This document shows positions 2,850 to 35,521 of a DNA stretch of 64,000 nt, piece after piece; the first letter of the stretch is position 1; every line of letters starts with the position of its first letter. This stretch comes from Blepharisma japonicum. Taxonomy: Eukaryota; Ciliophora; Heterotrichea; Heterotrichida; Blepharismidae. Below the pieces are notes generated by a model that was not told the DNA's origin, made no database searches, and saw only the letters and a program-made list of their open reading frames with translations. A program made the translations under genes and the position numbers. The stretch covers positions 248,001 through 312,000 of the forward strand of contig CATKHK010000046.1 in NCBI GenBank assembly GCA_949751835.1, given 5' to 3'.

Positions 2850-3998
2850 ATGAAAATAATTCTATTTGTGTTTTTCATCTCAATAGCCTTTGCAGAGCTA
2901 AGAACCGACTTAGTTCCTATTTCTATGTCCTGCCCACTTTATAGTTGTAAGCCAGACACTGTAACCTTTGCTGATTCAAGTGTATGTCTACAAATCTTTG
3001 GGATAAACTATTACACTCGGACCTGCGAATCTGGCTATACATGTGGCTTATCTGATGTCATGAACGGTCGTGCGAGCTGTGTTCATGATTCTCCTGAAGA
3101 TCCCTCCCCTAGATACAATGGTGAGGTTTGCACTAATGATTCTGACTGCATGTCAGATTACTGTGCTGATCATGTATGCAAACGATCTGAAGAAGGAGAT
3201 TCATGTGATTCTGACACTGACTGCAATGCAGGCCAATTTTGCTACACCAATGCAGCCACAGCTCAAAATTTTTGTGCTCCTGTCTATAAATCAGGAGAAG
3301 CTGGATGCACAAACGATAACCAATGTGTATCAACATGCGGATGCAGGATTATGGATAAAACTAATACAGCCAAAAATACATGCACCCCTTATTTTAGTTT
3401 ACCTAATTATGAGCCTATAATGGGATGCCCTTCAGATGGGTTAATTAAACTTATATGCACTTCTGGATATTGCTGGGGAAATACGACAACAAGTATGTGT
3501 ATTCCAGCACCAAAAACTAACGGTACTATACCTCTTTCTTGTGGAGATGATTCTACCTGTATAAGCAATTATGATGAGATTACTGACACTGATTTTTGGC
3601 AAGTCTGTAACTGTGGCTATAATAAAGATGGCCAAAGCTACTGCAATCTATTTTATGGAGATGTGCCTTATCAGAGCTTCTTTGAATCACTTAAAGATTG
3701 ACTTTCATCTGGACTTGCTAGCAAGTGTAACACTGATGCCCGGTTTAGTGATTCTTGCCTTAAAAGCTATTGGAGTGAGAAGAAATATCATGAACTCAAA
3801 TATTGATTAGTATATACAAATTTATATCCTAAAGTTCAAAATGCTGACAACTGCACTCTAGCTGTTATGTTTCCGGAATATTATAAGTTTTATGACCCAA
3901 ATACAACTCCTGGGGGCAATGATAGTGACGATATTGATGACAGCTCAGCAGTTGAAATTGGGCTGATATTTGCGTTTCACCTTGGTTTAATAATTTAA
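2850..3998 (+). CDS. Secreted Cys-rich surface protein with Dickkopf-like module (copy 1)
   Basis: This encodes 382 residues if UGA is Trp. The TGA at 3699-3701 corresponds to TGG in the neighbouring paralogue, and a second TGA lies in LKYW. Residues 1-15 (MKIILFVFFISIAFA) are a signal peptide. The body is Cys-rich. The stretch YNGEVCTNDSDCMSDYCADH (about residues 89-108) has the spacing of the Dickkopf N-terminal Cys-rich module seen in many ciliate surface proteins. The end is acidic (NDSDDIDDSS) followed by a hydrophobic tail ending HLGLII, a pattern that fits GPI anchoring. It probably sits on the cell surface. It is a tandem paralogue of the gene at 4415-5542, most conserved around PIMGCPSDG and CTSGYCWGNTTTSMC. 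The ligand is unknown. Confidence 0.85.
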
Positions 3999-4414: not shown

Positions 4415-5542
4415 ATGAAAATCACTCTGCTAGTGCTTCTCATCTCTCTCGCCTATGCTGAATGGGAGCTTGATTTAGGTGTTTCAATGACATGCCCACT
4501 ATATAGCTGCAAGCCAGACACTGTAACCTTTGGTGATTCAAGCGTATGCTTACAAGTCTTTGGCTCAAACTATTACACTCGCCAATGTTCATCTGGCTAC
4601 ACATGTGATGTATCTGGTGTGAATAATGGCCGTGCTTACTGTGTATATGATAATGGTAATACCCCGGAACTCAGATATAACGGTGAGGTTTGCACCTATG
4701 ACTCCGATTGTATGTCAAGCTCCTGTGTAGATAATGTTTGCAAGCGAAGTCAAGAAGGAGACATCTGCGTTACTGACACTGATTGCAATGCAGGACAATT
4801 TTGTTATTACAACAAGACTTCAACTGAAAATTATTGTGTTCCTCAATTAAAATCAGGCCAGACAGGATGCGCAAATGACAACCAATGTGTATCAACATGC
4901 GGATGCAGGATTATGAGTATAGTGAGTTCGAGCAAGAATACATGCACCCCTTATTTTAGCTTGCCTAATTATACACCGATAATGGGATGCCCTTCAGATG
5001 GGTTTATGAAACTTATATGCACTTCTGGATATTGCTGGGGAAATACGACAACAAGCATGTGTATTCCAGCACCAACAACAAAAGGCACAATACCTCTTTA
5101 CTGCGGAGACGATTCTACTTGTGTAAGCAACACTGATACGCGCATTCAAACTAGCTTTTCACAGGTTTGCAACTGTGGCTATAATAAAGTAGGCCAAAGC
5201 TACTGCAATTTGTTTTACGGAGATGCACCTTATCAGAGCTTCTTGAATTCACTCCAAGCTTGGCTTTCTTCTGGCTTTGTTAGCAAATGCAACACTGATG
5301 CTCGTTTTGGCGACACATGCATTCAGAGCTATTGGACTAAGGAAAAATTCAATGAACTCAAATATTGGGCGACTTACACTAGCTTATACCCTAAAATCCA
5401 AAATGCTGACGATTGCACTTTGGCTGTTATGTTTCCTGACTATTATGCCTTATACAAATCACATGGGAGTGGAGATAGTGATGACAACTCTGCTACTGTG
5501 ATTGGGCTGCTTTTTGCATCTTTCGTTGCCTCGTTAATCTAA
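4415..5542 (+). CDS. Secreted Cys-rich surface protein with Dickkopf-like module (copy 2)
   Basis: This encodes 375 residues with no UGA codon, so it can be read in any code. The signal peptide is MKITLLVLLISLAYA. The Cys-rich body follows the same order as copy 1: CPLYSCKPDTVTF, then the Dickkopf-like YNGEVCTYDSDCMSSSCVDN, then CVSTCGCRIM, PIMGCPSDG and CTSGYCWGNTTTSMC. The tail (SGDSDDNSATVIGLLFASFV) has the small-residue plus hydrophobic pattern of a GPI signal. Trp codons here align with TGA in copy 1, which supports UGA=Trp. It is convergent with the membrane-protein gene at 5572, with 29 nt between the two stops. Confidence 0.87.
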   Translation: MKITLLVLLISLAYAEWELDLGVSMTCPLYSCKPDTVTFGDSSVCLQVFGSNYYTRQCSSGYTCDVSGVNNGRAYCVYDNGNTPELRYNGEVCTYDSDCMSSSCVDNVCKRSQEGDICVTDTDCNAGQFCYYNKTSTENYCVPQLKSGQTGCANDNQCVSTCGCRIMSIVSSSKNTCTPYFSLPNYTPIMGCPSDGFMKLICTSGYCWGNTTTSMCIPAPTTKGTIPLYCGDDSTCVSNTDTRIQTSFSQVCNCGYNKVGQSYCNLFYGDAPYQSFLNSLQAWLSSGFVSKCNTDARFGDTCIQSYWTKEKFNELKYWATYTSLYPKIQNADDCTLAVMFPDYYALYKSHGSGDSDDNSATVIGLLFASFVASLI

Positions 5543-6437: not shown

Positions 6438-7424
6438 TTAATTAACACGAAAGCCGGTTACTGCCAAATGCGGCTGTTGAGCAAGCACGTAAGCAGGTGT
6501 TGGCTTTATCAGTTGCTGAAAATTAAAATTATTCTGAGAACATAAGGATTCGTACTTTTCTGCTGCCTTCAAGAATTTTTTGCCTAATAAGATAGCAGAT
6601 AAAAAGAATATTACTGCATTTATAGCTGCATTTATCCATATATAGCTTAAATTTTCTTTAAAGTTGTCTGTAGTATTATTATTCTCATTTGCTGTTTCAT
6701 AATTGGAACTGTTTTCATTTTCCTCTACTTTAATTTTTATTATTTTATTCCACTTTGTATCTTTGATTTCTTTCCATGATTCCAAACTTGGCTTATTGCT
6801 TGGAAGAGAGTGGCCTCTATATAAAATTGAGCTTTTGATTTTTCCTAATTCAATATTAACTTTGGTGAAATCTGGCTCTTTTACCATATTTTTAACTTCT
6901 GAGCTTGAGGATGGGCTAGTGTCAGCTGAACATAGAAGAAATGATGCTACAATTATACCTACTGCTATGATGATGAATGCTCTTAAGTATGTTTTAATTG
7001 CTCTGGCTGTTTTATGATGGGCTGCTCTAATTCCTAAAGCAGATGCTATAAAAATTCCAAAGTCACAAACAGCAATCAGTATGACTAAGGATCGATAAGG
7101 ATTGTTTGTATCATTTTGTTGAGTAGTAAAAAAATTAGCCCAGTATAGCAGGCTGACGATGCCAACTCCTCCTGAGATAAAAAATATAACACTCATTATT
7201 CTTGATAGTTTGTAAAGCCTTGATCTTGATTTTTCGATTTTTAAATTGACTGGAAATTCTGGTCTATAGGGTAGAGGCTGCTGATAAGGCTGTTGATAAT
7301 ATCTTGGATCAGTACTTGGATATTGCTGCAGAAGTGGAGCAGATGGGTGTGCATCTTCATACCCACGAGGATAATTTTGGAAATCTGACTGGAAATTTGA
7401 AGGATAGGTATTTAAGCTCGCCAT
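6438..7424 (-). CDS. Four-helix membrane protein with Pro/Gln/Tyr-rich N-terminus
   Basis: This encodes 328 residues without introns. Residues 1-60 are rich in Pro, Tyr and Gln (QQPYQQPLPYRPEF), a disordered cytosolic tail. Hydrophobic segments follow at about 75-95 (SVIFFISGGVGIVSLLYW), 112-130 (SLVILIAVCDFGIFIASAL), 148-166 (FIIIAVGIIVASFLL) and 275-293 (AAINAVIFFLSAILLG). A long Asn/Ser/Lys-rich loop of about 100 residues between helices three and four has several N-glycosylation sequons. The 3+1 arrangement with one large loop resembles tetraspan-like proteins, but I cannot name the family. It is probably at the plasma membrane or in the endomembrane system. Confidence 0.72.
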   Translation of the reverse strand: MASLNTYPSNFQSDFQNYPRGYEDAHPSAPLLQQYPSTDPRYYQQPYQQPLPYRPEFPVNLKIEKSRSRLYKLSRIMSVIFFISGGVGIVSLLYWANFFTTQQNDTNNPYRSLVILIAVCDFGIFIASALGIRAAHHKTARAIKTYLRAFIIIAVGIIVASFLLCSADTSPSSSSEVKNMVKEPDFTKVNIELGKIKSSILYRGHSLPSNKPSLESWKEIKDTKWNKIIKIKVEENENSSNYETANENNNTTDNFKENLSYIWINAAINAVIFFLSAILLGKKFLKAAEKYESLCSQNNFNFQQLIKPTPAYVLAQQPHLAVTGFRVN

Positions 7425-8300: not shown

Positions 8301-11300
8301 TTAATTAATGGCTTCATCACCAATGTCTGGAAGATCGTTATTCACAATGCTACGATTTATTTCAGTTGGACTGCTATCAAGGTCTGCAATTCTCCTATTG
8401 TCTTTCCTATTAATTCTAACACTATATCTATTCTGTGGTGGAGAGCTCTTCTGTAGCCCTTCTTTTACAAGCTCATAGCATGTTTTACCAAAAAGCGCTA
8501 TTGAAGAAGCAGTTTGAACACCCATAATTCCAATTGCAACTGAAATTAATGTTAATTCAAAATCATTTTGCATGCTTGATGTCAAGTTAAAGAGGTTTGC
8601 AGACATTAACCCCATAAAAAGCATGGTGCAAATTTCAGTAAGAGTATTTGTGATTTGAAGAATTGGTTCCTCATAAGGCCGGTATTTGATTAAATAAAGC
8701 ACAGTTATTAGTGAAAGTACGGTGCTAATTGTAACTTGAGAAGCTGGGTAATTATTAAGTAGAACTACATTCATAATATAGATAAATCTTCTTCCGAAAA
8801 ATAAAGAATAATACTGGGTGCTCATAAGTCCTTGGTCGTTTTTGAACTCATAAAAGAAAGAGCTCCAAAGTTTCTCAAATCCTTTTTCTCTTTCTTGAAT
8901 TTTTGGGAGGTTTTTATAAGATAACATGAAAAATAGTAAGGGTGAAATTGATGAAATGATCTAAATAAAATTTACAAAAACTCCAAGGCATATAATTGTA
9001 TTTGTAACTTGGGTCACGTTACCAAACGAAAACTAAATAAAAATTACGTTAAATAATCCAATAAGTGCTGCAGCAGTGAAGTCTAAATAACTTTGAATCC
9101 AAAACCTCACAAATACTGACCATTTATAATTTTTTAATATTCCTGCGAGTTTTCTAGCTAAGTATCTTTGGGAGCAATTTGATAAGAAATAAACAAGAGG
9201 AAACGCAGCTACAATCGCACCAAATGTTGTTATCGCGCTTCCAACATTAAGCAAAATTAAATCATTATCATAGCCATATTTTATAGCTTGAGCATATGGT
9301 TCAGTTCCTTGGCTTTTATCAATAAAATATTCAAATAAATTTGGTAAATAATAATTTCCATTCATATTTATCACAAACGCATAAAATGAATCGGTCATTG
9401 GGATTTTTGTAAGACCTAAATATGCAATATAATTTAGAGTATTCAGCATGCTCCATAAGCTGGCTGGATTAGGGTTGATGAATGAGACTGCTACTGATGC
9501 TCCTATAATTGATTGAACTGCTGCTGTTGTTTGGCTAGTTACTGCGCTAACAGCCTGACTGCTTGAATATGGACTATAATGATAAAGAACTCCCACTAGA
9601 GTATCATCTTTAAGTAGCGCGTTTGTTTCTGATACAAAATACGTCAAATTTAGCAATTTTACAGCTACTGGAGTTTTACTGTTAATAACTACAGAAAAAG
9701 ATAATGAAATTGTATAAAATTTGTCACTCATCCTTTCCATTGTTCATGAATAATCAGATAAAGAAACATTTTCGACATTGATACTTAAATCATATAGAGA
9801 AATTACATTCGCAAGATTTTCAGAGAATGTGAGATTCAAGGAATTGTCATCATTGACAGCCAAATAAGCATAAAAATAAGCTGCATCGCAAGCAGTTCCA
9901 TTGTATCCAACTTGACAAACGCATGAGTTATTTTGAGATAATTCAGCATTAGCGATACAGGTTTCACAGATTGATGAATCAACGCAAGAAGTGCACTTGC
10001 TTGGACAATCTTTGCAAATTCCATTGACTGAATATTGGCTTGACTTACATTGCAGACATTCTTCTTGGGTTTTATTTAAATAATACCCATTATTGCATAT
10101 GCATTCTCCAGATGATAAATAGGCATTCGTCTTGCACTGGAGACAAGATCCAGCGATAAAATCATCGCAGACGCTGCAAATAACATTATTGCACAAATTG
10201 CAAGTTTTATCATACCTTACGCATCCGACAGCTGAGCATGCATTATTGCAAGAAGAACACTGTGTCCCATCCCAGTACTCAGAAATCGGACAATTAGGAA
10301 TGCAAGCTGCTGAATTATCGACAGGACATAAAGAGCATTGTGAGCAAGAGGTAGAGTATAAAGAAGAAAAATCAGCAATTTTGTTCCTAATTTTCAGGTC
10401 CCAAATAAATCCAGTGAAGTAATTGCCTAATGTTGAACTTGATAGAAGTGATGAGCCTATCATAATCTTAAATGAGTCTTGCAAGTCTTCAAATAACGAT
10501 GTGCTTAAGTCACTTGATGCATCTAAAACTGAGTTTATGCTAAATGAAATTACTTGGGCAGGAGTTAAAGAAACGTCTGAAGAAACTATTAATAAATTTC
10601 ATTGATTTTGGTTAAGACTGCTAGTGCTCGAGTATAAAGCAGTTGATCCATCACTCAGCTTTATTTTTAACGAAGGAGATAAGGAAGACAAACTTAGCTT
10701 CAAAATTGGAGTAGCTAATGTAGAGTTTGACTGCTTAGTAAATAAATCACAAGAAGTGGCAGTAGGGTTAAGCCAAATTGAAATAGTAAACTTGGGAGCA
10801 AGAATCAAGGCTTTAGAAGATGAAGACACATTCATATATGATTTTCCATTAAAGTAGTATCCACGATACTGAGCTGCATAAGGATCTGATTCTTCATATG
10901 TTGGATAGAAATTTGTATCATTTCCTGTGCTTGTAATAATACTAGATTGAAGATCTATTACTTCATCTTTAATTTGGTTTGGCTTTAAATTAAAAATATA
11001 TGCATCTGATGAGTCAATTATACACTTGTTTCCTGATTTTGAGTACCCAGTTGGACAATAGTTAATACACAAGTTTTCAAATAGATAGTGGGTGCTTGAG
11101 CAAGTTATACAGTCAGCAAATGTAAATGCTGAGCATGAAGCACAAGCGCTATTGCAAAGCTCACAGCTCTCTGAAGAGTCAACCCAAAGTGCATTTGCAT
11201 TACATTGGCAAGTTGTCCCTGAAAGACTTGCATTTGGTATGCAGCTAAGGCAAGCTCCAGAGAAGGTGTTGCAAGACAAGCATTCCTTGGCTTTGCAAAG

Positions 11301-14300
11301 TCTACATGTCAAACCACCTACACAGCCATGGCTGCATCCTGCTTTGCAGGAGGTGCAAAGAGTTGGATAACTGCTTAAGCTGCAACTACTTAAACAGGTT
11401 AAATCTGTTGGGCAGCTAGTGCAGCCAGTCCCACATCCAGAAGTGACCCAATCAGTTATCGCATGAGAATTATCGCTATATACTTGCAGATTCCAAGCGT
11501 ATCCTTCCCAACCATTGGCTAAGGTTTGATCGGCACCTAAAATTAGGGTTCCTGAAGCACTATCTCTGAAAAAGCTAGATGACCCTGATATTTGAGTGTT
11601 AACTATTGCGCCATTAACATAAGAGATAATCTTAGTAGTGCCATCGCCTAAAATTTGTCCAGAAAATGAGAAAAAGCTCCAAGAATTAAAGATACTTGAA
11701 GAACCTGAGACTGAAATTGTCGTTCCATCCAATAGCTTAATTGTAAGTGTTGGGATTCCAGCTGTAAAACTTATAGAAAGATATACTGAGCCATCATATT
11801 TTGTTAAAAAGTAGCCATCATTTAAGCCCTTTATCCAAGAAGATAGAGAGAAGTAAGGACTAAATTTGAAGTTGGATCTCATATAGCTTGAGCCTGTAAA
11901 GTAATACCCTCTTTGGATTGATGGAATAGGGTCATAAGCATCCCAACTCGGATATGTATTTGTGCTATCACTTCCAACAGTAAATCCACTTACAATATCA
12001 AGACGAAGCTGATCAATAAGATTCAAGTACAATCCAAGCAATGAAGACAAGTCACAATTATGTGTCGCAGAGTTTTGCGTGTATCCTGTAGGACAGCTTG
12101 GCTCACAAAGATTGTTTATATAGTAATAAGAGCTAATACAAGAGGAGCATTGGTAATAATTAACTCCGGTGCATGAAGAGCAACCTGTGCTGCAAACTAC
12201 ACAGGAAAAGCCATCTGATGATAAATAATATCCAGTATCACATGAGCACACAGATCCAGATGCATGAGTAACACAAGTTGTACAAAGATTTGATCCAAAC
12301 CCAGTGCAAACGCTGCAAAGCTTATCATCGCATACATTGCATGATACTCCCCTTACACAGCCTAGAGAGCAGCTGTTGCAAAGAGAGTATGTTCCTCCAG
12401 AATTTTGATATGATCCCAATCCACAAGCCCATAAACAGGTGCTTCCAAGCCCTGTCCCACAAATATCGTTATTTACCTGAGTGCTGAAGTCAGTAATTGG
12501 ACTATTCCACATTTTGAAATTGTAAATAAACCCTGCAAAACTCGAAGCAGTGCTTTTGCCAATTAGAATAGTTTGAGAAGCAACATCTCTAAAGATATAA
12601 TTGCTTGTGCTGCTTGGAGTTCCTGCTATATTGTTTATGTATACAGTAGCTATAGTAGAGCCTGAAGAATATGATATAGTTATTGAATAATATGACCAGC
12701 CTGAAGAACTTATTACTCCAGTCGTAATAGTGGTTGTGGCTAAGCTTGGGCTCTCTAGAATGATTGTAGCTGCTCCGCTAGAATTTATAATTAATCTATT
12801 TTGTTTTTCGAAGAAATCTCCAGCAGTTTCTACATAAGCCCAAAATCCAAGAGAAAAGCTGTAAGATAAATACACGTCAATACTTGATTCTAAGTATTTT
12901 CCACTTGAGAAATAAAGTCCCCTCTTTTTGGCAGGTATAGGATCGCTGATTTCAGGACTATTGAAAAACTGATAAGTAGATGAGCTTGAAGCTGTTGTGA
13001 ATATACCATAAGATCCTGCAAAATTCTGATCGAAAGACTGAGTTATAACTGGAGAAGAAACACTTGTGCAACTCCCTCCAAAGCCATAAGGACACTCATG
13101 TAAGCAAATATTTCCAGCAAGAGTTTCACCTGTTGTACAAGTAGTACAAAGAAAATAGTAAGCTCCTGCACATTGAGTGCACAAAGAATCGCAATATTCA
13201 CAAGTTTGAGATGATTGAACCCAAAATGCATTGGAATCGCATGCACAAACTCCACTGGTTAAGGTAGCTCTGTCTATGCAGCTAGTGCAAGGTCCATCAA
13301 ACAGTGTGCATTCTTTACATTCTTTTTGCAAGCATAATCGGCAAGTCAGAGAACTCCTACATCCATATGGGCTGCAACTTGAGTCACAAGTTGTGCATCC
13401 ACTTGAATAGAAATATCCAAAATCGCAGTTATCAGGGCATAATAATTCTGAAGGGCAAGTTGAACATCCGCCAACACATCCAGTTGTTTTTCACTCGTCA
13501 AGATAGTTGGAGTTTGAATTAAAGACCTCTAAGCTTCACAAAAACCCAGTGAATCCATTGCTCCCAGATGAAGCTCCAATCTTTAAATTGCCTAAATCAA
13601 TGAATGGTGATGCATTAGCGGATATTTGGCTTGCCGAAAGAACCCCATCTGTATACAAATAAATTTCCATTTTTCCACTAATGATATCACTTGTAAAAGC
13701 AATATTGTGCCATCCATTAAAAAGATTTGTTGCTCCACTAACTGAAACAGTTGACGAGTCCTGAAGAGCTATAATTAAAGTAGGAACTCCGCTACTTGAC
13801 AATGAAATTTTGAACATATCATTACTTCCATTAATTTTCAGCATCAAATATCCAGATGAAATAGGCTTAACCCATATTGTGACCGTAAAGTAAGTATTTA
13901 ATATAAGGGAAGTTGATGCCATATAGGAACTGGAAATGAAATAGTAGCCGCGATATATTGAAGGGACAGGATCAGTACTTTCAAATGTAGGGTAAGTGTT
14001 TGTACTTGATGAGCCAACTTGGACCCCACTCACTGTGTCTAATTGGATTAAATCTTGGAACTGCAAACTGAAAGATAAGTTTGAAACCAAGGTGCATTGA
14101 TTATTCACAGAGTCTTGGGTATATCCTGTAGGACAAACAGAAATGCAGAGTCCGGATATAAAGTAATACATTGTTAAGCAAGAAGTACATTGATAATAAC
14201 TTGTTCCAGAACAGCCTCCGCAGCCTGTAGTGCAACCCCAAACACATGAAAATCCATCAGCAGCTTGAATGTAATTAACATCACATGAACATGCAGTTGC

Positions 14301-17300
14301 CCCTCCTCCTGAAGCGTGGCTCACGCATTGAGTGCATAGCCCTGACCCAAATCCACTGCAAAGCGAGCAAAGATGATCATAGCAAATATTGCAAGAAACT
14401 CCTTGAGTGCAACCTAAAGCACAAGAATTGCAAGACTGGCAAGCGGCTCCATCATAGTATTTGCTAATATCACAAGCCCAAAGACATGAAGTAGATGCTG
14501 ACCCGCAAGGAACTGTCAATTTTGAAGAAAAGTCAGAGATAACAGTGTTCCATAAGCTGAAATAATATATAAAGCCATTAAAGCCAGAAGAAGTACTTTT
14601 TCCAACATATAGAATGTCTGAAGAAATATCTCTGAACAGTAAGTTTGTAGATAAAATTGGAGTTCCTGCGACATTGTTTACAAAGGTAACGGTTGAGGTC
14701 GATCCTGACATATAGGAAACTGTTAAGCATAAATAAGACCATCCACTAAAAGTTAGAGATGTAGTAGTGACTGTAGTCGTGACTTGAGATGGGCTTTCTA
14801 AAATAATATTGGCTACTCCATTAGAAGCTAATGTAACTCTTGCTTGTTTTTGAAAAATATCTCCGTCTGTAATTGTATAAATTCATAGGCCGACTGAAAA
14901 TTGATAGCTCAAATAAATATTGACATTGGCTTGCAAGTATTGTGAACCAGAAAAATACAGTCCTCTTTCATATGAAGGAACTGGGTCAGCAGATTCTGGG
15001 CTAGTGAAAAATTGATAAGTAGATGCAGAATTGGAGGTTGTCAATATCCCATAAGAACCTTGAAATACAGTATCAAAGCTCTGGTCAATAACAGTTGATG
15101 TTGAACTTACGCATGACGGACTCGTCGTAAAGCTATATGGGCATTCATTTAAACACACAGTGTCAACTAGAATTTTAGTACCTGTGCAAGTGCTACACTC
15201 AAAATAGTAAGTTTGTAAACAAGTAGAGCACAAATTATCACAAATTTCACAAGTTTCTGAAGATTGGATCCAAAAAGCATTCGAATTGCAAGAGCAAACA
15301 CCTCCTGATAGCCCAGCATTTGTAATGCAGGCTGTGCAAGGACCATCAAATAAAGTGCAAGCTGTGCATTCCTTGTTTTTGCAGAGTCTACAAGTAAGAG
15401 AACTCCTACATCCATGAGGAGAGCAAGATCCATCACATGTCGTGCAAGATCCAGATGAGTAAAAAGAGCCAAATCCACAATTATCAGGGCAAATCAACTC
15501 AGAAGGACAACCTGAGCAAGACCCAGAGCAGCTTGAAGTTTGCCACTCATCCAGAAAATGAGTGTTTCCATTGTAAACTTTTAGACTCCATAAAAATCCA
15601 GTAAAACTGGGGGTTCCATTAGAATATCCAAGATATAATGAGCCAGCATCAATAAAAGGGGATGCATTTGCTGCCATCTGATTTGATATTAAGGACCCAT
15701 CGGTATAAAATAATATTTTTGTATATCCGCTAACGATGTCTCCAGTATATGCAATATTGTGCCAACTATTAAAGAGACTAGTAGACCCTGATAATATAAC
15801 TGAGGATGAATCTTGAAGAACCAATGTAATTTGAGGCCATTCTGATAATGTAAAAACTATTTTGAATATTTCACTTGACCCATTCAGCTTAAGAAACAAG
15901 TTTCCTTGAGATATTGCCTTTACCCAAATTGTAACAGTATAGAAGGGAGTAATTGTTAGAGAGCTTAAAGACATTAATGATGAACTCGTAAAATAGTATC
16001 CTCGGTATATAGAAGGCACAGGATCAGTTGAATCTGTTCATGATGGATAAGCATTTGCACTTGAAGAGCCAACAGTAAAGCCACTCACACTGTCAAGCTG
16101 AATTAAATTAGTAAGAGCAAGAGATATAGAAGTGCTTAGTAATAAAGTGCATTGGTGGCTTGTAGAGTCTTGGGTGTATCCAGTTGGACATGAGCTGAGA
16201 CAAAGTCCGTTTAAGTAATAATAGCTTGTTAAGCAAGAAGTGCATTGATAGTAGCCTGTCCCTGAACAGCCAGCACACCCAGTAGTGCACGCCCAAATAC
16301 AAGAAAAGCCGTCAGTTGAAGCTATATAGTTGGTATCACATGAACAAGGAGTTGTTCCTCCTCCAGAAGCATGAGTAACACATAAAGTACATAAGTTGGC
16401 ACCAAAACCAGAACACTGAGAGCATAGATAATCATCACAAATGCTACATGATATTGCTCTTCTACAACCTAAATTTCCGCAGCTATTACATGATGCATAA
16501 GATGACGTAGCATAGTATTGGCCAATTGTGCAAGACCAAAGACACGTAGTAACTAAACTCGTTCCACAAGGTATAGTGAATTTAGATGAAAAATCAATTA
16601 TTGCTGTATTTCATAAACTGAAATAGTAAATGAAACCAACAAAGGTAGAAGAAGTAGAGCTCTTTCCAAGGTACAAAAGATCAGAAGCTGCATCTCTATA
16701 AAGATAAGCTGTATTTGAAAGCGTTGTTCCAGCTGCCCCATTATTATAAGCAGTAATAGTTGTTGCCCCACTTGTATAAGTAATTGTGAAAGAAAGATAA
16801 GTCCACCCAGAAAATGCTGATAAAGCTGTAGTCGATGCTGAAATAGTAGATTGAGATGGATTTTCTAAAGTTGCTGTTACAACACCTGCTGAACTTAATG
16901 AAAGTCTGGTTTGCTTTTGTAAGATATCACCTGCAGTTATTACATAAACTCATAGTCCCATAGAAACAGTGTTGCTTAAATAAATATTTGTATTCGATAC
17001 TAAGTACTGTCCACCATTAAAATAAAGACCTCGCTTATAAGCTGGGATAGGATCTAATGAGTCTGGGCTATTCCAAAACTGATAGGTAGTAGCTGATGTT
17101 GACGTTGTAAACATACCATAACTTCCTCCAAATGAGGTGTCAAAAGTTTGATCTATAACGGAAGTTGAGATTACAGTGCAGGAAGGACTTGTAGAAAACC
17201 CATATGGACAAGCATTTAAGCAAACAGTCCCAACAAGAACTGCAGACCCACTGCAAGCACTGCAAAGGAAGTAATAAGTTCCAGTGCAAGTCGAACATAA

Positions 17301-20300
17301 AGTATCACATAATTCGCATGTTGCAGATGAAGCGACCCAAAATGCATTAGAGTTACAAGAGCAAACTCCTCCTGATAAGCCTGCATTTGTAATGCAAGCT
17401 GTGCAAGGTCCGTCAAATAGCGTGCATGTAGTGCATTCTCTATATTGACAAAGTCTACATGTTTCTGTACTCCTACATCCATAAGGAGAGCAAGATCCAG
17501 CACACGTTGAGCATGATCCCGAAGATAAAAACGATCCAAAAGCACAATTATCTGGACAAAGTAATTCAGAAGGACAAGTCGAGCATCCGGCCGGGCATCC
17601 AGATGTTTTTCATTCGTCTGCGTAATGAGTATTTCCATTAAATATTTTAAGACTCCACAAGAATCCTGTAAATCCATTAGCTGTGTTTGAATAGCCTAGA
17701 TATAAAGATCCTGAGTCTGTAAATGGAGAGGCATTAGCTGACGCCTGGCTTGATATTAAAGAACCGTCTGTATAGAAAAATATTTTTGTATATCCACTTG
17801 CAATATCTCCAGTAAAAGCTATATTATGCCAAGCGTTAAATAGGTTTGCAGTTCCAGTCAAAATTATCCCTGATGTATCTGCAAGCTTAAGTGTAATAGT
17901 TGGCCACCCTGATGATGTAAAAACGATTTTGAATATTTCACTTGACCCATTCAGCTTAAGAAACAAGTTTCCTTGAGATGTTGCCTTTACCCAAATTGTA
18001 ACAGTATAGAAGGGAGTAATTGTTAGAGAGCTTAAAGACATTAATGATGAACTCGTAAAATAGTATCCTCGATATATAGAAGGCACAGGATCAGTTGAAT
18101 CTGTTCATGAAGGATAAGCATTTGCACTTGAAGAGCCAACAGTAAAGCTGCTTATAGTATCAAGTTTAATTCAATCTTGTAATGCAAGAGACACGGGAGT
18201 ACTCGAAGATAAAGTACATAGATGATTCGTAGAATCCTGCGTATATCCAGTTGGACATGAGCTAAGACATAGTCCGTTTAAGTAATAATAGCTTGCTAAG
18301 CAAGAAGTGCATTGATAGTAGCCTGTCCCTGAGCAGCCAGCACACCCAGTAGTGCACGCCCAAATACAAGAAAAGCCGTCAGTTGAAGCTATATAGTTGG
18401 TATCACATGAACAAGGAGTTGTTCCTCCTCCAGAAGCATGAGTAACACATAAAGTACATAAGTTGACTCCAAAACCAGAACACTGAGAACACAAAGGATC
18501 ATCACAAATGCTGCATGATATTGCTCTTCTACATCCTAAATTTCCGCAGCTATTGCATGATGTACAAGATGACGTAGCATAATATTGAGCAATTGTGCAG
18601 GACCAAAGACAAGAAATATCTAAGCTCGTCCCGCATGGAATAGTAAACTTAGACGAAAAATCAGTTATTGCTGCATTTCATAAACTGAAATAATAAATAA
18701 AGCCAACAAAGGTAGAAGAAGTAGAGCTCTTGCCAAGATACAAAATATCAGAAGCTGCATCTCTATAAAGATAAGCTGTATTAGAAAGCGTAGTTCCAGG
18801 AATTGCATTCTTATAAGCAGTAATAGTTGTTGCTCCACTTGTATAAGTAATTGTAAAAGAGAGATAAGTTCACCCAGAAAATGCTGATAAAGCTGTAGTC
18901 GATGCTGAAATAGTAGATTGAGATGGATTTTCTAAAGTTGCTGTTACAACACCTGCTGAACTTAATGAAAGTCTAGTTTGCTTTTGTAAGATATCACCTG
19001 CAGTTATTACATAAACCCATAAACCTAGAGAAACACTATTGCTTAAATAAATATTTGTATTCGATACTAAATACTGTCCACCATTAAAATAAAGACCTCG
19101 CTTATAAGCTGGGATGGGATCTAATGAGTCTGGGCTATTCCAAAACTGGTAGGTAGTAGCTGATGTTGACGTTGTAAAAATACCATAACTTCCTCCAAAT
19201 GAGGTGTCAAAAGTTTGATCTATAACGGAAGTTGAGATTAAAGTGCAGGACGGACTTGTAGAAAATCCATATGGACAAGCATTTAAACAAATAGTCCCAA
19301 CACGAACTGCAGAACCACTGCAAGCACTGCAAAGGAAGTAATAAGTTCCAGTGCAAGTCGAACATAAAGTATCACATAATTCGCATGTTGCAGATGAAGC
19401 GACCCAAAATGCATTAGAGTTACAAGAGCAAACTCCTCCTGATAAGCCTGCATTTGTAATGCAAGCTGTGCAAGGTCCGTCAAATAGCGTGCATGTAGTG
19501 CATTCTCTATATTGACAAAGTCTACATGTTTCTGTACTTCTGCATCCATAAGGAGAACAAGATCCAGCACACGTTGAGCATGATCCCGAAGATAAAAACG
19601 ATCCAAAAGCACAATTATCTGGACAAAGTAATTCAGAAGGACAAGTCGAGCATCCGGCCGGGCATCCAGATGTGATTCATTCGTCTGCGTAATGAGTATT
19701 TCCGTTAAATATTTTAAGGCTCCACAAGAATCCTGTAAATCCATTAGCTGCGTTTGAATAGCCTAGATATAATGATCCAGAGTCAGTAAATGGGGATGCG
19801 CTACCTGAAACTTGATTCGATATTAGTACTCCATCTGTATAAAAATAAATTTTTGTGTTTCCACTTACAATATCTCCTGTAAAAACTATATTATGCCAAG
19901 CATTAAATAAATTAACAGTTCCGCTTAAAGTAACTGTTGTTGAATCCGTAAGTTTAAGTGTAATAGTTGGCCACCCTGATGATGTGAAAACAATTTTGAA
20001 CATTTCACTTGACCCATTCAGCTTAAGAAATAAGTTTCCTTGAGATGTTGCCTTTACCCAAATTGCTGCTGTATAGAAGGGAGTGATTGTTAGAGAACTT
20101 AGTGACATTAATGATGAACTCGTAAAATAGTAGCCTCGATATATAGAAGGCACAGGATCAGTTGAATCTGTTCATGAAGGATAAGCATTTGCACTTGAAG
20201 AGCCAACAGTAAAGCTGCTTGTTGTATCAAGTTTAATTCAATCTTGTAATGCAAGAGACACAGGGGTATTCGAAGATAAAGTACATAGATGATTCGTAGA

Positions 20301-23300
20301 ATCCTGAGTATATCCAGTTGGACATGAGCTGAGACATAGTCCGTTTAAGTAATAATAGCTTGTTAAGCAAGAAGTGCATTGATAGTAGCCTGTCCCTGAA
20401 CAGCCAGCACACCCAGTAGTGCACGCCCAAACACAAGAAAAGCCATCAGTTGAAGCTATATAGTTGGTATCACATGAACAAGGAGTTGTTCCTCCTCCAG
20501 AAGCATGAGTAACACATAAAGTGCATAAATTGCCTCCAAAACCAGAACAATGAGAACACAAAGGATCATCGCAAATGCTACATGATATTGCTCTTCTACA
20601 ACCTAAATTTCCGCAGCTATTGCATGATGTACAAGATGACGTAGCATAGTATTGGCCAATTGTACAAGACCAAAGACAAGTAGTAACTAAACTCGTTCCG
20701 CAAGGTATAGTAAATTTAGATGAAAAATCAGTTATTGCGGCATTTCATAGACTGAAATAATAAATAAAGCCAACAAATGTAGAAGAAGTAGAGCTCTTTC
20801 CAAGGTACAAAAGATCAGAAGCTGCATCTCTATAAAGATAAGCTGTATTTGAAAGTGTAGTTCCACCTGATCCATTCTTATAAGCAGTAATAGTTGTTGC
20901 CCCACTTGTATATGTAATTGTAAAAGAGAGATAAGTCCAGCCAGAAAAAGCTGATAAAGCTGAAGTTGATGCCGATATAGTGGCTTGAGATGGATTTTCT
21001 AAAGTTGCTGTTACAACACCTGCTGAACTTAATGAAAGTCTGGTTTGCTTTTGTAAGATATCACCTGCAGTTATTACATAAACTCATAGTCCCATAGAAA
21101 CAGTGTTGCTTAAATAAATATTTGTATTCGATACTAAATACTGCCCTCCAGAGAAATAAAGTCCTCTTTTATAAGCTGGAACAGGATCTAATGAATCTGG
21201 GCTATTTCAAAACTGATAGGTAGTAGTTGATGTTGAAGTTGTAAAAATTCCATAAGTGCCAAGGAAATTAGTATCAAAAGTTTGATCTATAACTGTAGTT
21301 GAAATAACTGTGCATGATGGACTTGTAGAAAATCCATATGGACAAGCATTTAAACAAGCATTTCCCACAAGAACCGCTGATCCACTACAAGCACTGCATA
21401 GAAAATAATAAGTTCCAGTACAAGTGGCACATAAATTGTCGCATATGTCGCATGTAGCTGTTGAAGCAACCCAAAATGCATTAGAATTACAAGAGCAAAC
21501 CCCTCCTGACAAGCTGGCATTCGTAATACAAGCTGTGCAAGGCCCATCAAATAAAGTGCAAGTTGTGCATTCCTTATACTTGCAAAGTCTACAAGTATCA
21601 GTGCTTCTGCAACCATAGGGTGAGCAGGATCCAGCACATGACACACAAGACCCTGATAAAAAAGTACCAAATGAACAAGTGCTAGGGCAAAGAAATTCTG
21701 AGGGACAAGTGGAACACCCAGTAGCGCAGCCAGTTGTTTTTCATTCGCTATTATAAAGAGTATTATCATTATAAATTTTAAGACTTCACAAAAATCCAGT
21801 GAATCCATTCGAGCTCGATTGTCTTCCAATATAAAGTGTTCCTGCGTCTACAAATGGGGATGCATTAGTTGAAGTGGCACTAGTAATAGATGTCCCATCA
21901 ATATAAAGGTTTAAAACTGTCTTTCCGCTTGCATTGATTGTACTTGTGAATGCTATATTGTGCCAAGCATTGAATTGGGTCGTTGACCCAGTAAGTGTGA
22001 CTGTAGAAGCATCATTGAGCGTAAGCGCAAGAGAAGGATAGCCTGATGAATTAATGGAAAGGAGAAAAACATTAACAGTGCTGAACTTTGTTACAATATT
22101 TCCGGAAACAGAAGGGTTGATCCACATAGTGACTGTGAAATAAGGGGATATTGATAATGAGGATAAAGTCATATAATATGTACTTGTAAAATAATAGCCT
22201 CTATAAATGGAAGGAATTGGATCAGTCGACTCCCAAGTCGGATACTTATTTGTATTAGATGAGCCTACAGTAACCCCGCTGAGGATATCTAGAACAATTT
22301 GATTTTGAAAAGCAATTGAAAGAGCAGTGCTTGTAGAAAGCGTGCAAACATTATTGGTTGAGTCTTGAGTATATCCTGCAGGACATGAGCTGAGACACAT
22401 TGTGGTTAAAAAGTAATAGCCTGATAAACAAGAGCTGCATTGATAATAACTTCCTCCAGTGCATGTAGCGCAACCTGTTGGGCAGGTTGTGCAAGTAAAA
22501 CTATCTGAATTATAGTACCCTGGGTCGCATGAACAAGCAGTTGCCCCGCCTCCTGAAGCATTCGTAGTGCATGTAGTGCATAAGCCTGAAGCCCATCCTG
22601 TGCATACAGCACAAAGAGGATCATAACAATTGCATTTATTAGCTCCAATGCATCCATTTGTGCATTGGCTAGCACAAGTTACACAGCTAGAACCACTCCA
22701 ATATTTTCCAAACACACAATTAACAAAGCAAGAGTTTGTTCCAGATCCGCAAACAATGCTATACTGCCCTGCCCAAACTGAAAAATTTGTATTCCAAAAT
22801 TTAAAGTTGTATACCCACCCATTAAAATTTCCACTTGACCCTTTTCCAATAATAAGTGTTTGCGTTCCTGCCTGGTATCATCTGAGTAGCTGATCATTTC
22901 CAGTAGTTGTTTGATCAGCAACTGTGTTCAAATATTGAACCATTGTCGTGTCTCCACTAGAAGAGGAATAAGTGACTGTATATGAAAGGAAAAATCATAT
23001 ACCGTTTGATGTATTAGGGTTATTGCCTGTATTTAATGTAGATGCTTGGCCTCCACCTTTTTGCTCTAAATTAAGTCTTAAGCCTCCTTGCGCGTTGACT
23101 CTTAAAACTTCATTTCCACTTCCTGATTTTATATATAAGAGATCATTGCTGGTTGAGACTGTTTTATACCATACACAGAGAGCAACATTGTAATTTGTAT
23201 AAAATGCACCTGAGGTTGATAAGTAATCACCACTGCTAAAATATAATCCTTGCTGATAAGCTGGAATTGGATCTACACTTTCAGGACTCCAAAAGAATTG

Positions 23301-23630
23301 ATAAGTTGAGGAGCTAGTCGCTGTAATAAAAGGGCCATATGATCCACTGAATAAAGGTTGGTCAAAAGTTACATCGACTACAGCATTTGTATTAAGAGTG
23401 CAAGAGGGAGTTGTAGCAAAACCATAAGGGCAATTCGGCAAGCAAACGTTACTGAGAATTATTGTTGTAGCCGGGCTAGTTTTGCATGTGGTGCACTGAA
23501 AAGCTGTTGCACCTATGCAGTTTGCACAAAGATCTTGATCGCACCCAGTTCCACTTTTAACGGGATATATATAAAGTAGTAACACAATAAATTTGAGAAA
23601 GCTTTTTGGAAGGAGCATGGATTCTCCCAT
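8301..23630 (-). CDS. Giant Cys-rich LamG-repeat multi-pass membrane protein
   Basis: One reading frame runs from the ATG at 23630 to the TAA at 8301, keeping phase over 15.3 kb when UGA is Trp and two 15-nt introns are removed; this gives about 5,099 residues. The N-terminus (LPKSFLKFIVLLLYIYPVKS) is a signal peptide. About 13 LamG/ConA-like beta-sandwich modules follow, in two alternating types. Type A has RGLYFSGG...FIYYFSLWN and type B has YRGYYFTSS...GFLWSLKI. They are separated by furin-like blocks such as CRLCKYKECTTCTLFDGPC. The last ~450 residues form a domain with about seven hydrophobic segments, a YRPYEEP motif and a cytosolic Ser-rich tail. It is likely a very large cell-surface receptor or adhesion protein. 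The LamG and furin-like identities are inferred from pattern, and the ligand is unknown. Individual modules could be mistaken for separate genes. Confidence 0.85.
8961..8975 (-). other. 15-nt intron near the 3' end of the giant gene
   Basis: The coding strand reads gtaaattttatttag. Removal joins CLGVF to IISSIS inside a membrane helix; left in, it would end the protein with TAG. Confidence 0.9.
9033..9047 (-). other. 15-nt intron in the giant gene (membrane domain)
   Basis: The coding strand reads gtaatttttatttag. Removal joins ALIGLFN to FSFGNV in phase 0. The same 15-mer is used in the ankyrin gene at 35936-35950. Confidence 0.9.
11928..22217 (-). repeat. Tandem array of five ~2.05-kb coding units inside the giant gene
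   Basis: Equivalent points just before the YRGYYF motif of each type-B module lie at 22217, 20153, 18086, 16019, 13967 and 11927. The periods are therefore 2064, 2067, 2067, 2052 and 2040 nt, all multiples of three. Each unit holds one type-B LamG module, a Cys block, one type-A LamG module and a second Cys block. Copies differ most at the two ends of the array. At homologous Trp codons some copies use TGA and others TGG; for example the Trp before STDP is TGG in the 22.2-kb copy and TGA in the next three. Confidence 0.85.
16020..20153 (-). repeat. Two near-identical 2,067-nt units at the core of the array
   Basis: Units 18087-20153 and 16020-18086 have the same length and are nearly identical by eye over long stretches, for example around 18360-18480 against 20430-20540. 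This points to recent duplication or gene conversion. Collapse or expansion in an assembly is possible here. Confidence 0.8.
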
Positions 23631-24866: not shown

Positions 24867-26039
24867 ATGCCAAGAACAACTCCCTTCACATGCAGCAAGT
24901 TTCTCGGAAATTTTTTTGTTATTTTTGTATTCTTGGTATTATCATTCATTTATTCAAGTGTCCTAAAAGTTTTTGGCCCTTATTATAAAGGTACTCTACA
25001 TATAGAGAGATCTACTTTTCCAATATTAGTAATTTTTCATTTCACAACGTTTATGTTTATTTGATCTTTTTTCAAAACAATGCTCACAGACCCTGGAATA
25101 GTTCCTCCTTTATGGGGATTTTATATGGGAGATTCAGAAACAAAAAGACGGCGATATTGCTTAATGTGTCATGTATTTAAACCTGACCGATGCCACCATT
25201 GCTCAGCTTGCAATAGATGCGTGCTTAATATGGATCATCACTGCCCATGAATCAACAACTGTGTAGGCTTTTTCAATAGAAAATATTTCATCTTACTGCT
25301 TATTTATGCCTTGATAACCTTATATGTGGTTGCGATTTCAATGTTCCAGCCGATTTATGAAAAAATAAGTACAATTATTGAAAAACGAGACATCCACGCA
25401 TATTCCGAAGGCTATATAATAGCTGCATACACATTAGACTGTTTATTAGCGATGATTTTGACTATGTTTTTCAAATTTCACCTGAAATTAGTGTTTTCGA
25501 ATGGGACAACGATAGAAACGATGGACAAAAATGCTATAGGAAAAGGAGCCTCTTATAATAAAGGCGTAAAACGAAATTTTGAGCAGGTCTTCGGAAGAAA
25601 TCCTTGGCTTTGGCTTTTACCCATAACTGGTGAGTCTGGAAAGCCTATTGGAGATGGTGTCGTTTGGGTCGAAAGTTATAATAACCTTGAAGAAGAAGTC
25701 CCTGGAAATGAAGCTGAGCAACAAAGATTTTCGCCTACACTTAATGATAATAAAATTCCACAAGATGAAACAAAAGGGGTGGCTGCCAAAGTCTTAATGA
25801 GCCCGCCACTCAGAAAAATTAACGATTCATTGGAAGAAGATTCAAAAGCAAGAGAATTAAACAAATATGCGCGGCCTACTGTAAAAAGAATTCAAAGTAT
25901 ACCAAAAGAAATGAGTACTGGGGCAGATTCTTATCCGTCGTCAAGTAGGATGGAAGCTGCAAATACAGGCCATAAAATAGATAGCGGAAGACCAATTGGT
26001 AAACAATTTCATGAAACCCTGAGTAGTCCTGAGATTTAA
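24867..26039 (+). CDS. DHHC-type protein S-palmitoyltransferase
   Basis: A membrane enzyme that attaches palmitate to Cys of target proteins, usually at Golgi, plasma or vacuolar membranes. The product has 390 residues. Two N-terminal helices (about 12-32 and 50-70) are followed by the Cys-rich domain, whose core MDHHCPWINNCVG has catalytic Cys at residue 126. The invariant Trp after it is encoded by TGA (25248-25250), strong evidence that UGA is Trp; another TGA lies in FMFIWSFF. Two more helices follow (about 138-155, 180-200). The TTxE motif (NGTTIE) and the PaCCT-like stretch [16 protein letters not shown] (about 235-250) are present. The last ~120 residues are a disordered cytosolic tail. 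All hallmarks of an active enzyme are present. Confidence 0.95.
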
Positions 26040-29980: not shown

Positions 29981-30645
29981 TTCGAAATTGTCTGTAGTTA
30001 ATCTGCTTTGTCAATAATTAAAACTTAGTTAATCATCAAAACGTCACCAAAATATGAAATTATGCTTAAAATGACCTAAATTTAAAACTTTTATGTTCTG
30101 GAATAGTCATTTTACTGATATTAAGCAATAGATTTGATTAAGTTGGGATAGGGTAGAGAATGGTAGGCTTTCAGACTAAAACAGGTTTGAAAGTTTATTA
30201 GAGAAATTTGTGATGATTTGGTTGAGAAATTGGCATATAAATAACAAATAATGGCATCTTAAATAGTATGAAGATTTAGGTTTATTAATGAATTGGATGA
30301 AATTAAATGTAAATAAAGCTCTCAAAGCGTAAAAAAAGTTTCAAGGTGAAATAAAGAAGTTTTTTGATAATATATTTTAATTTAAGAGTTGATATATTTT
30401 TGCTTAAAACTTGAAAAAGTCTTCATTATAAGTGTTTTCTAAATTAATTTTGATTTTGAGGTAAACGAGCTGTTATCTTTAAATACTTACTAGATTTATC
30501 TAAATAGCAATCATTTTTTTCTAATTCTTATCTCAATTCAAAAACATAGCAATTTACAATTATTTTTTAACTTAATTAAGTTATACTTGTCTCTATTATA
30601 ATATATCTCAAAAATTAATTTTTGACTAATTACTTGTAATTTAGA
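29981..30645. other. Intergenic, AT-rich
   Basis: About 0.67 kb. It contains the duplicated 3' flank noted for copy 1 (about 30038-30095) and otherwise nothing recognisable. Confidence 0.6.
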
Positions 30646-33483: not shown

Positions 33484-33505
33484 ATAGGTGATTTAATTAG
33501 ATATA

Positions 33506-34564
33506 ATGAAAAGAGCATTCAAAATTTTTGATTTAAGAAGTGACACTGTCACCAAACCAAATGCTAAGATGCTTCAAGCTATGCTTAATGCTGAAGTCGG
33601 CGATGATGTTTATGGTGAAGATACTACAGTCAATAGACTTCAAAAGAAATGTGCAGAAATTTTTGGGATGGAAGCAGGGCTATTTGTCGCTAGTGGGACA
33701 ATGGGAAATTTAGTAAGTCTTCTTACACATTGCAAGAGAGGTGAAAGTGTCATACTTGGAGATCGGTCACATATAAACGTATATGAGCAAGGTGGAATTG
33801 CTGCATTAGGAGGAATTTTCCCAAGCTCAGTTCCAAATCAAGAAGATGGAACTTTAAGAACTAGTGATATTTTAGGCAAAATATTAAAAGAAAATATTCA
33901 TTTTTCAAGGCCAAAAGTCATTGCAATAGAAAACACCCACAATATATCTGGTGGGAAAGCATTAAACGTAGACTACATAAGAGAAATTGTTAGAATCAAA
34001 GAAGAAAACAAATTAAAACTTCATATAGACGGAGCAAGAATTTTTAATGCTTATTATGCTTTAAAAGAAACTAACAGCCAACTAACTCCTAAAGATTTAA
34101 CACGTGGAGCTGACTCAGTTAATATTTGTTTCTCAAAAGGACTTTGCTGCCCGATAGGTTCTGTTATTGTAGGAAGTGAGAGTTTCATTAAAGAAGCTTT
34201 GAGAAATAGAAAAATTGTGGGGGGAGGTATGAGACAAGTCGGGTATGTGGCAGCTGCTGCATTAGAAGCGTTAGATTCAGTGGAAGAGATAGTTACAAGT
34301 GATCATTTAAAAACAAAAAAACTGCATAAAGGACTTAAAGAAATAGGCTGTGATGTAGATGCGCCGATTTCTAATATATTGTTGTTTACACCTCCAAAGC
34401 CGTTTTTGCCTAATGAATTTGTAGCTTTGATGAAAGAAAGGCATGTACTTGGAAGTGTGGCGTATACAAATAAAATCAGATTTATTCCAAATTCTGGAAC
34501 TTCAAATGAAGATATTGATGAACTTTTGGATATTATAAAACAAATAATAAAGGCAAAGGCTTAA
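33506..34564 (+). CDS. Low-specificity L-threonine aldolase (PLP enzyme)
   Basis: Cleaves L-threonine/L-allo-threonine to glycine and acetaldehyde. The product has 352 residues, normal for the family. The typical start FDLRSDTVTKP (residues 8-18) and VGDDVYGEDTTVN are present. The fold-type I PLP features are ASGTMGN (62-68), HIDGAR with the cofactor-binding Asp175 and SKGLCCPIGS with the Schiff-base Lys211. IVGGGMRQ follows. No targeting signal is evident, so it is probably cytosolic. It begins 22 nt after the Vps39 stop. L-threonine 3-dehydrogenase, the other threonine-to-glycine route, is encoded at 53040-54044. Confidence 0.95.
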   Translation: MKRAFKIFDLRSDTVTKPNAKMLQAMLNAEVGDDVYGEDTTVNRLQKKCAEIFGMEAGLFVASGTMGNLVSLLTHCKRGESVILGDRSHINVYEQGGIAALGGIFPSSVPNQEDGTLRTSDILGKILKENIHFSRPKVIAIENTHNISGGKALNVDYIREIVRIKEENKLKLHIDGARIFNAYYALKETNSQLTPKDLTRGADSVNICFSKGLCCPIGSVIVGSESFIKEALRNRKIVGGGMRQVGYVAAAALEALDSVEEIVTSDHLKTKKLHKGLKEIGCDVDAPISNILLFTPPKPFLPNEFVALMKERHVLGSVAYTNKIRFIPNSGTSNEDIDELLDIIKQIIKAKA

Positions 34565-34745
34565 TAATTTTAAAAGGAGCATTCCTTTATTATGTTGCTA
34601 ACTTATCGAATTAATATTCTTAATATAAACTCTAAAAATACCCACAAAAATTAGCATATAATTAAGAATTATTTCTTTTAAGCCTTATATTAAATTTTAA
34701 AAATTTTGATTAAATGCTTAAAGATTCGTTTTTTATCTTATAAAT

Positions 34746-35477: not shown

Positions 35478-35521
35478 AACAATAAATTTTACTTGAAAAA
35501 TTAGTTAAAAAGTGTGATTAG

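What the first reader, a model, noticed from the sequence alone, without database searches (positions are those of the whole stretch)
8301..23630. A 5,099-codon LamG/Cys-rich, seven-helix surface protein hidden across 13 apparent fragments
All fragments on the minus strand share one frame (first codon base = 2 mod 3) from the ATG at 23630 to the TAA at 8301; apparent breaks are UGA codons or two 15-nt introns. The architecture (signal peptide, ~13 LamG-like modules in alternating types A and B with furin-like blocks, about seven C-terminal hydrophobic helices and a short tail) is that of a huge adhesion receptor. LamG and furin-like identities are by pattern; the combination with a multi-pass C-terminus seems unusual outside ciliates. 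It is the best candidate here for an undescribed system (cell-cell recognition, mating or feeding).
Basis: partly seen in the sequence, partly recalled or inferred. Interest (0 to 1): 0.72.

Follow-up and report, generated by a model that had tools for sequence, protein, structure and literature searches.

The report
Giant lectin-rod, TRP-like ciliate surface receptor
In a single-celled ciliate (probably Blepharisma) one 15-kilobase gene encodes a 5,099-residue surface-type protein: a rod of thirteen lectin-like domains on a membrane part distantly related to TRP-like channels, a membrane part found about a hundred times in this genome, often in tandem arrays.

Summary
Window 23630-8301 (-) is one reading frame of 5,099 codons with UGA read as Trp and two 15-nt introns removed. 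It has a signal-peptide-like start, 13 LamG modules (Pfam Laminin_G_3 above cut-off), A and B types alternating, Cys-rich spacers and a multi-pass C-terminus. C41 paralogs keep the introns, one keeps the same start, and dN/dS is low (about 0.18), so the long frame is real.

The gene is not alone. Its C-terminal domain has 100 loci in this 45-Mb genome, 64 of them close (this gene included), with 27 on one 257-kb contig whose left end is a telomere.

No adhesion-GPCR model from Pfam matches. Through divergent relatives the membrane domain links to Pfam PF06011 (TRP; fungal FLC/Pkd2-like by recall): 6 of the 8 above-cut-off PF06011 places in the genome are loci of this family. The window gene itself does not score.

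Best reading: a repertoire of surface receptors, lectin rods of variable length tethered to a TRP-like membrane domain, used for contact or recognition sensing. The anatomy is well supported; ligand, channel activity and role are inferred. New variant of a known kind.

The parts
8301..23630 (-). Whole gene: 5,099 codons + TAA, code UGA=Trp, two 15-nt introns
   Evidence: dN/dS over the last 1,909 codons against a C41 paralog 0.18
23550..23630 (-). Signal-peptide-like N-terminus (residues 1-27)
   Evidence: hydrophobic segment residues 6-24; a C41 paralog gene starts in the same way (MGEN...); cleavage site by eye
22737..23390 (-). LamG module m01 (type A)
   Evidence: own HMM iE 2e-68
21708..22331 (-). 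LamG module m02 (type B)
   Evidence: own HMM iE 5.7e-82; best Laminin_G_3 stretch of the first 800 residues
20682..21302 (-). LamG module m03 (type A)
   Evidence: 91-92% identical to m05/m07
19644..20270 (-). LamG module m04 (type B)
   Evidence: 88% identical to m06
18618..19235 (-). LamG module m05 (type A)
17577..18203 (-). LamG module m06 (type B)
16548..17168 (-). LamG module m07 (type A)
15513..16136 (-). LamG module m08 (type B)
14493..15101 (-). LamG module m09 (type A)
13458..14078 (-). LamG module m10 (type B); target of the structure model
   Evidence: AlphaFold2 block pLDDT 77-92 at model residues 61-160; Foldseek and VIA matches to ConA-like lectin folds
12444..13058 (-). LamG module m11 (type A)
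11418..12032 (-). LamG module m12 (type B)
10338..10991 (-). LamG module m13 (divergent, B-like)
   Evidence: iE 5.3e-62; 18-33% identical to the others
9882..10337 (-). Membrane-proximal Cys-rich/EGF-like block (residues 4432-4583)
   Evidence: translation; EGF_Teneurin 18.2 bits, below cut-off 24.3
9561..9881 (-). Membrane-proximal beta-rich domain (residues 4584-4690)
   Evidence: conserved in 21 aligned paralogs; SWM_repeat at E 0.036, below cut-off, in 1 of 21; 'beta-rich' is inference
8481..9560 (-). Multi-pass membrane domain (residues 4691-5040), PF06011 TRP-like through relatives
   Evidence: 105 matches in own genome; hydropathy; PF06011 link
9033..9047 (-). 15-nt intron 1 (gtaatttttatttag)
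   Evidence: same offset in C41 paralog L010
8961..8975 (-). 15-nt intron 2 (gtaaattttatttag)
   Evidence: same offset in C41 paralog L010
8304..8480 (-). Short, poorly conserved C-terminal tail (residues 5041-5099), presumed cytosolic
   Evidence: (41% identity to C41-1)

Best explanation
The gene encodes a giant surface receptor of a Blepharisma-like heterotrich ciliate. A signal peptide exports a rod of about 4,560 residues: 13 LamG (ConA-like lectin) modules of two alternating types, joined by furin-like Cys-rich spacers, then a small domain at the membrane. A multi-pass domain distantly related to the TRP family PF06011 (fungal FLC/Pkd2-like by recall) anchors it, with a short tail presumed cytosolic. 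Most likely mechanism: the lectin rod binds glycans or proteins on a partner cell, prey or surface, and tension or binding is passed to the TRP-like domain to gate or regulate Ca2+ entry. The repertoire arose by tandem gene duplication and by gain and loss of A+B module pairs, giving paralogs with rods of different length and sequence. Shown: single selected frame, domain make-up, family size, arrays, likeness of modules within a gene. Inferred: surface location, ligand binding, channel activity, contact sensing, and the recombination mechanism.
Against: The window's own C-terminus gives no PF06011 hit, only 1 of 21 close paralogs does (E 0.036), and only 1 of 10 divergent relatives did. The same C4 locus scored 25.6 bits, below cut-off, in the six-frame search. 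Two of the 8 over-cut-off PF06011 places (C51, C60) are not loci of this family. No solved structure usefully matches the membrane domain by sequence, and its own structure model failed (pLDDT 37.4). No expression, localisation, ligand or current data. The membrane-proximal LamG is not much more variable than the membrane domain among 23 array members (mean identity 0.61 against 0.67; membrane domain higher in 193 of 253 pairs), so diversifying selection for recognition is not shown.
Confidence: 0.5

Rival explanations
1. A mating-type or self/non-self recognition family, like Tetrahymena MTA/MTB: variable ectodomain, Cys-rich block and multi-pass anchor, signalling on cell contact during conjugation.
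For: Same general plan is reported for MTA, MTB and MRC1 (furin-like/GFR domain plus five TM helices; variable N-terminal region in MTA and MTB; passages of PMC10901506 and PMC3608545). The gamone 1 receptor of Blepharisma is still called putative (passages of PMC10892320). Large, tandem, variable family.
Against: 'Laminin' does not occur in the main text of PMC10901506; no head-to-head paralog pair here (the divergent neighbour at 24867-26039 is a DHHC transferase); 64 close loci is far more than a two-type pheromone system needs; no sequence comparison with MTA/MTB was possible.
Confidence: 0.15
2. A non-signalling surface coat or adhesin: the multi-pass domain is only an anchor, and the family works like the surface antigens of Paramecium or an attachment and prey-capture glycocalyx.
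For: A contig-long, telomere-adjacent array of 27 copies on C69, a broken copy, and modules more alike within than between genes are typical of surface-antigen families (general knowledge); purifying selection on the ectodomain.
Against: The membrane domain is large and under purifying selection (dN/dS 0.14 and 0.23), and some residues in it are invariant among 13 aligned members, ten of them with other upstream domains or unknown ones; a plain anchor would not need this.
Confidence: 0.25
3. Adhesion-GPCR-like receptor: large ectodomain with LamG and a seven-helix signalling domain.
For: Gross plan: LamG plus roughly seven helices.
Against: No GAIN/GPS or 7tm model at E<=1 in the window pieces or in 21 paralogs; relatives score with PF06011 instead.
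Confidence: 0.05
4. Several shorter genes or a decaying pseudogene that only look like one frame.
For: A broken copy exists in the family (C69:30160-39274 has an in-frame stop and a frame break).
Against: Only two stops, both inside 15-nt introns kept in paralogs; dN/dS about 0.18 over the last 1,909 codons, below 0.3 in every unsaturated domain; another member is one continuous frame with the same order of domains.
Confidence: 0.03

Closest known systems
PF06011 TRP (fungal FLC and Pkd2-like, by recall)
   Same: Homologous membrane domain by relatives (6 of 8 over-cut-off places in this genome); extracellular domain before a multi-helix region and a tail, as described for Pkd2
   Different: Ectodomain here is a rod of about 4,560 residues of LamG and Cys modules; no lipid-binding ML-like model appeared; direct score of the window gene absent; ion conduction untested
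Tetrahymena MTA/MTB and MRC1 (mating-type recognition complex)
   Same: Large ciliate proteins with Cys-rich GFR/furin-like block and multi-pass C-terminus
   Different: LamG modules, far larger size and copy number, no head-to-head paralog pair; homology and gene-segment joining not tested
Ciliate GFR Cys-rich expanded gene families (Tetrahymena species-specific genes)
   Same: GFR Cys-rich genes are among the top seven domain classes of species-specific genes, which are often tandem (passages of PMC6564038)
   Different: Here LamG-bearing and TRP-like
Membrane-anchored calpains (DEK1 type)
   Same: ConA-like LG domain in one chain with a multi-pass domain proposed to act in mechanosensitive Ca2+ transport (passages of PMC10762896)
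   Different: LG domain lies in the linker, beside a calpain protease; no protease model appeared here
Adhesion GPCRs
   Same: Modular LamG-bearing ectodomain (recalled)
   Different: No GAIN/GPS or 7tm model seen

Membership tests
Laminin_G_3 / ConA-like lectin superfamily (PF13385) | Profile score over the curated cut-off | tested here: met
   44.7-72.6 bits against 27.6 in six pieces; 11 of 13 modules matched at E<=1
Laminin_G_3 / ConA-like lectin superfamily (PF13385) | Beta-sandwich fold | tested here: met
Laminin_G_3 / ConA-like lectin superfamily (PF13385) | Glycan or Ca2+ binding | not testable with these tools
   shared fold shows no function
Furin-like / GF receptor Cys-rich repeats | Profile match over cut-off | tested here: inconclusive
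   Window spacers: no furin-like or GF_recep model; weak PDB profile matches to let-23 and R-spondins; relative L045 over cut-off for GF_recep_IV
PF06011 TRP | Profile score over cut-off in the window protein | tested here: not met
   no hit; 1 of 21 paralogs at E 0.036
PF06011 TRP | Homology through intermediates | tested here: met
   L049 33.1 bits, matched by the family C-term HMM at 2.3e-40; 6 of 8 over-cut-off places in the genome; against: L049 25.6 bits in the six-frame search, 1 of 10 relatives only
PF06011 TRP | Nine-helix membrane domain and fold (as in Pkd2) | tested here: inconclusive
   six clear hydropathy peaks plus weaker ones; model failed
PF06011 TRP | Ion conduction | not testable with these tools
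   -
Adhesion GPCR | GAIN/GPS and 7tm_2 domains | tested here: not met
   no such model at E<=1
Tetrahymena MTA/MTB mating-type proteins | Head-to-head pair of related genes | tested here: not met
   divergent neighbour is a DHHC palmitoyltransferase
Tetrahymena MTA/MTB mating-type proteins | Sequence homology of the TM exon | not tested
   no Tetrahymena sequence was at hand in the collections used

The most novel reading that the evidence does not exclude
A heterotrich repertoire of lectin-tethered TRP-like channels: dozens of paralogs, each with a LamG rod of different length and sequence coupled to a Ca2+-permeable membrane domain, with a telomere-adjacent array that reshuffles by unequal recombination. 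It would be a contact-sensing 'touch and taste' system of a single cell, serving partner, prey or self recognition.
Probability: 0.3. Interest if true: 0.8.

Novelty: new variant of a known kind. Interest (0 to 1): 0.55.

Why it matters
If right, single-celled ciliates built large receptor repertoires by joining lectin rods to TRP-like membrane domains, apart from the animal adhesion receptors. It offers candidates for the unknown receptors behind Blepharisma mating and for contact sensing in heterotrichs. It also shows how giant genes with a reassigned code and 15-nt introns fall apart when read with the standard code.

Tried and rejected
Adhesion GPCR was set aside for lack of GAIN/GPS/7tm models. 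Separate genes and pseudogene were set aside. Tandem Repeats Finder gave nothing; its longest period is 500 bp and the unit here is about 2,067 bp. In IMG/VR, 77 stretches matched a C-terminal pattern but none was confirmed as a relative. PDB profile searches with the C-terminal alignments gave 0 matches and 2 weak ones, one to the Cys part and one chance-like. The C-terminal structure model was worthless (pLDDT 37.4), so no fold search was made with it. The idea that the ectodomain evolves much faster than the membrane domain found only weak support. Many of the structural neighbours listed for the LamG module are the lectin-like subdomain of clostridial neurotoxins: a shared superfamily fold only, no sign of a toxin here. 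NCBIfam gave nothing for the two window pieces tested. Paper searches. In the rows listed (20 of 88; 20 of 110; 20 of 112; 8 of 3,374, too broad to be informative; none; the others in full) I saw no title or abstract start that describes this family; I read passages or sections of nine papers, not whole texts.

Full report
OBSERVATION. Read with UGA=Trp (table 4), window 23630-8301 on the minus strand is open apart from two TAG codons, each the end of a 15-nt GTA...TAG stretch at 9047-9033 and 8975-8961. Without these the protein has 5,099 residues. The frame has 3 TAA/TAG in total; the other five frames have 196-331 each. Of 23 TGA codons 22 lie in the repeated half-units. At two columns all 13 modules have Trp, coded TGA in three and TGG in ten; other TGA columns are mixed (Trp, Tyr, Phe, Lys, Gln, Arg), column 12 shows no other Trp among 11 modules, and column 180 has m01 alone. 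The published Blepharisma stoltei genome uses UGA=Trp, predominantly 15 and 16 bp introns and CCCTAACA telomeres (section 5 of PMC9942806). The same telomere repeat stands at the left end of contig C69 here (1 of 10 contig ends tested). The organism is therefore very probably Blepharisma; the assembly (45.19 Mb, 224 contigs) is not identical to the published 41 Mb in 64 contigs.

MEMBRANE DOMAIN. Residues about 4691-5040 give six clear hydropathy peaks averaged over paralogs, with weaker extra segments. A search of the genome with this part gives 105 matches, which merge to 100 loci: 64 close, this gene included (C69 27, C37 17, C55 6, C75 5, C41 2, C83 2, and one each on C46, C78, C191, C34, C184), and 36 divergent. 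'Close' is my grouping by contig and score; LamG probe hits lie on all 11 of those contigs, but I did not read all 64 genes, and some loci are fragments. The 21 close intron-free copies aligned (21 of 30 fetched; the window copy L009, L010-L013, L023, L026, L028 and L034 left out) have mean column identity 73%. Neither Pfam (best E 0.011, single members) nor PDB (no match at E<=10) recognises them directly. Ten divergent relatives were fetched (of 36 loci): GF_recep_IV passes its cut-off in L045, DUF4215 in L044 and L051, myxo_disulf_rpt in L044. One of the ten, L049, passes the cut-off of PF06011 TRP (33.1 against 28.5 bits, residues 397-612), overlapping the part that the family HMM covers (158-567, E 2.3e-40). 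Searching the genome with PF06011 gives 30 places, 8 over the cut-off; 6 of these 8, and 13 of the 30, are places of this C-terminal family, among them two C69 members below cut-off (E 1.0e-3 and 0.24); the other two of the 8 (C51, C60) are not. In that search the L049 locus scored 25.6 bits only, below cut-off. I take this as remote homology, with the reserve that the window gene itself does not score.

FAMILY AND EVOLUTION. The module probe has 149 matches in the genome, a lower bound by the tool's own statement. On contig C69 (256,672 bp) module or C-terminal hits run from 3.8 to 254 kb, with 27 C-terminal loci, 25 on one strand, and the left end is telomeric; the right end tested is not. 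A complete member there (39850-48900) is a single intron-free frame of 3,017 codons stop to stop, first ATG at codon 10, with seven LamG domains (an eighth weak HMM hit lies in the membrane part, E 0.03) and the C-terminus. The neighbouring copy 30160-39274 has an in-frame TAA and a frame break, and no 15-17-nt GT..AG stretch in the 61 bases looked at around each; it may be a pseudogene, though an assembly error is not excluded. Introns: L010 has both at the same offsets as the window copy, L012 both six bases later in the locus, L011 and L013 the first only, 23 of 30 none. dN/dS (own Nei-Gojobori script) of the window tail against C41-1 (1,909 codons) is 0.18 and against C41-2 (1,910) 0.19; in single domains with unsaturated synonymous sites 0.08-0.29; two comparisons were saturated (m10 against C41-1, tail against C41-2), and several have dS near or above 1, so single values are rough. 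The first 3,189 codons were not tested against a paralog in this way. Repeats within the gene show 0.13-0.21 over whole half-units. A-type modules within one gene are more alike (92.5% DNA for three here, 89.6% for four in C41-2) than between the two genes (80.7%). These are the modules most like the probe, 3 of 6 A modules here and 4 of 8 A-type hits in C41-2; m01, m09 and m11 of this gene are far less alike (35-59% protein). So part of the module pairs was gained or homogenised within genes. Among 23 array members the LamG next to the membrane (mean identity 0.61) is only a little more variable than the membrane domain (0.67), although the latter is higher in 193 of 253 pairs.

WHAT IT DOES. 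The parts shown are a signal-peptide-like start, a lectin-like rod and a conserved multi-pass domain remotely related to PF06011. Fission yeast Pkd2 is described as a stretch-activated Ca2+ channel with an extracellular domain, nine helices and a dispensable tail (passages of PMC11277609); that Pkd2 belongs to PF06011 is recalled, not tested. By analogy I propose a contact receptor in which the rod captures a ligand and load or binding acts on the membrane domain. A plain coat or adhesin, and a mating recognition system like MTA/MTB, remain open. In Tetrahymena each of MTA, MTB and MRC1 has a GFR domain and five TM helices (passages of PMC10901506), so the general plan is known in ciliates; LamG rods and the TRP-like link were not seen in the paper listings and passages that I looked at (calls named under Tried and rejected).

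VERDICT. Real, well bounded, one of a large family; new variant of a known kind.

Noticed in passing
G000 contig C69:1-256672: Hits of this family run along nearly the whole contig (27 C-terminal loci), and its left end is a CCCTAACA telomere.
   Followed up: partly
C69:30160-39274 (L041): A family member with an in-frame stop and a frame break and no tiny intron at either: pseudogene or assembly error.
   Followed up: partly
G000 contigs C110 (L044), C15 (L051), C22 (L045), also C19, C6, C57, C33, C4, C12, C52: The same membrane domain is joined to other Cys-rich ectodomains: DUF4215 over cut-off in L044 and L051, GF_recep_IV over cut-off in L045; ten loci looked at. C110, C139, C19 and C15 hold several loci each.
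   Followed up: partly
G000:C9:684761-709643 and C78:78672-125049: LamG clusters without a C-terminal hit nearby (none on C9; on C78 the only one is at 169161): perhaps LamG families with a different end.
   Followed up: no
G000:C34:422077-432513 and C191:5342-16036: The two stretches have the same spacing of module and C-terminal hits, as alleles or an assembly duplicate would.
   Followed up: no
window 51502-53022 (-): FAD_binding_3 protein, E 8.3e-68; could bear on pigment or quinone chemistry, not examined.
   Followed up: no
window 33506-34564 (+): Beta-eliminating lyase family protein, E 7.7e-91.
   Followed up: no
window 2850-3998 (+) and 6438-7424 (-): Two ORFs near the gene with weak matches below cut-off: a Dickkopf_N-like Cys pattern and a tetraspanin-like protein.
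   Followed up: no
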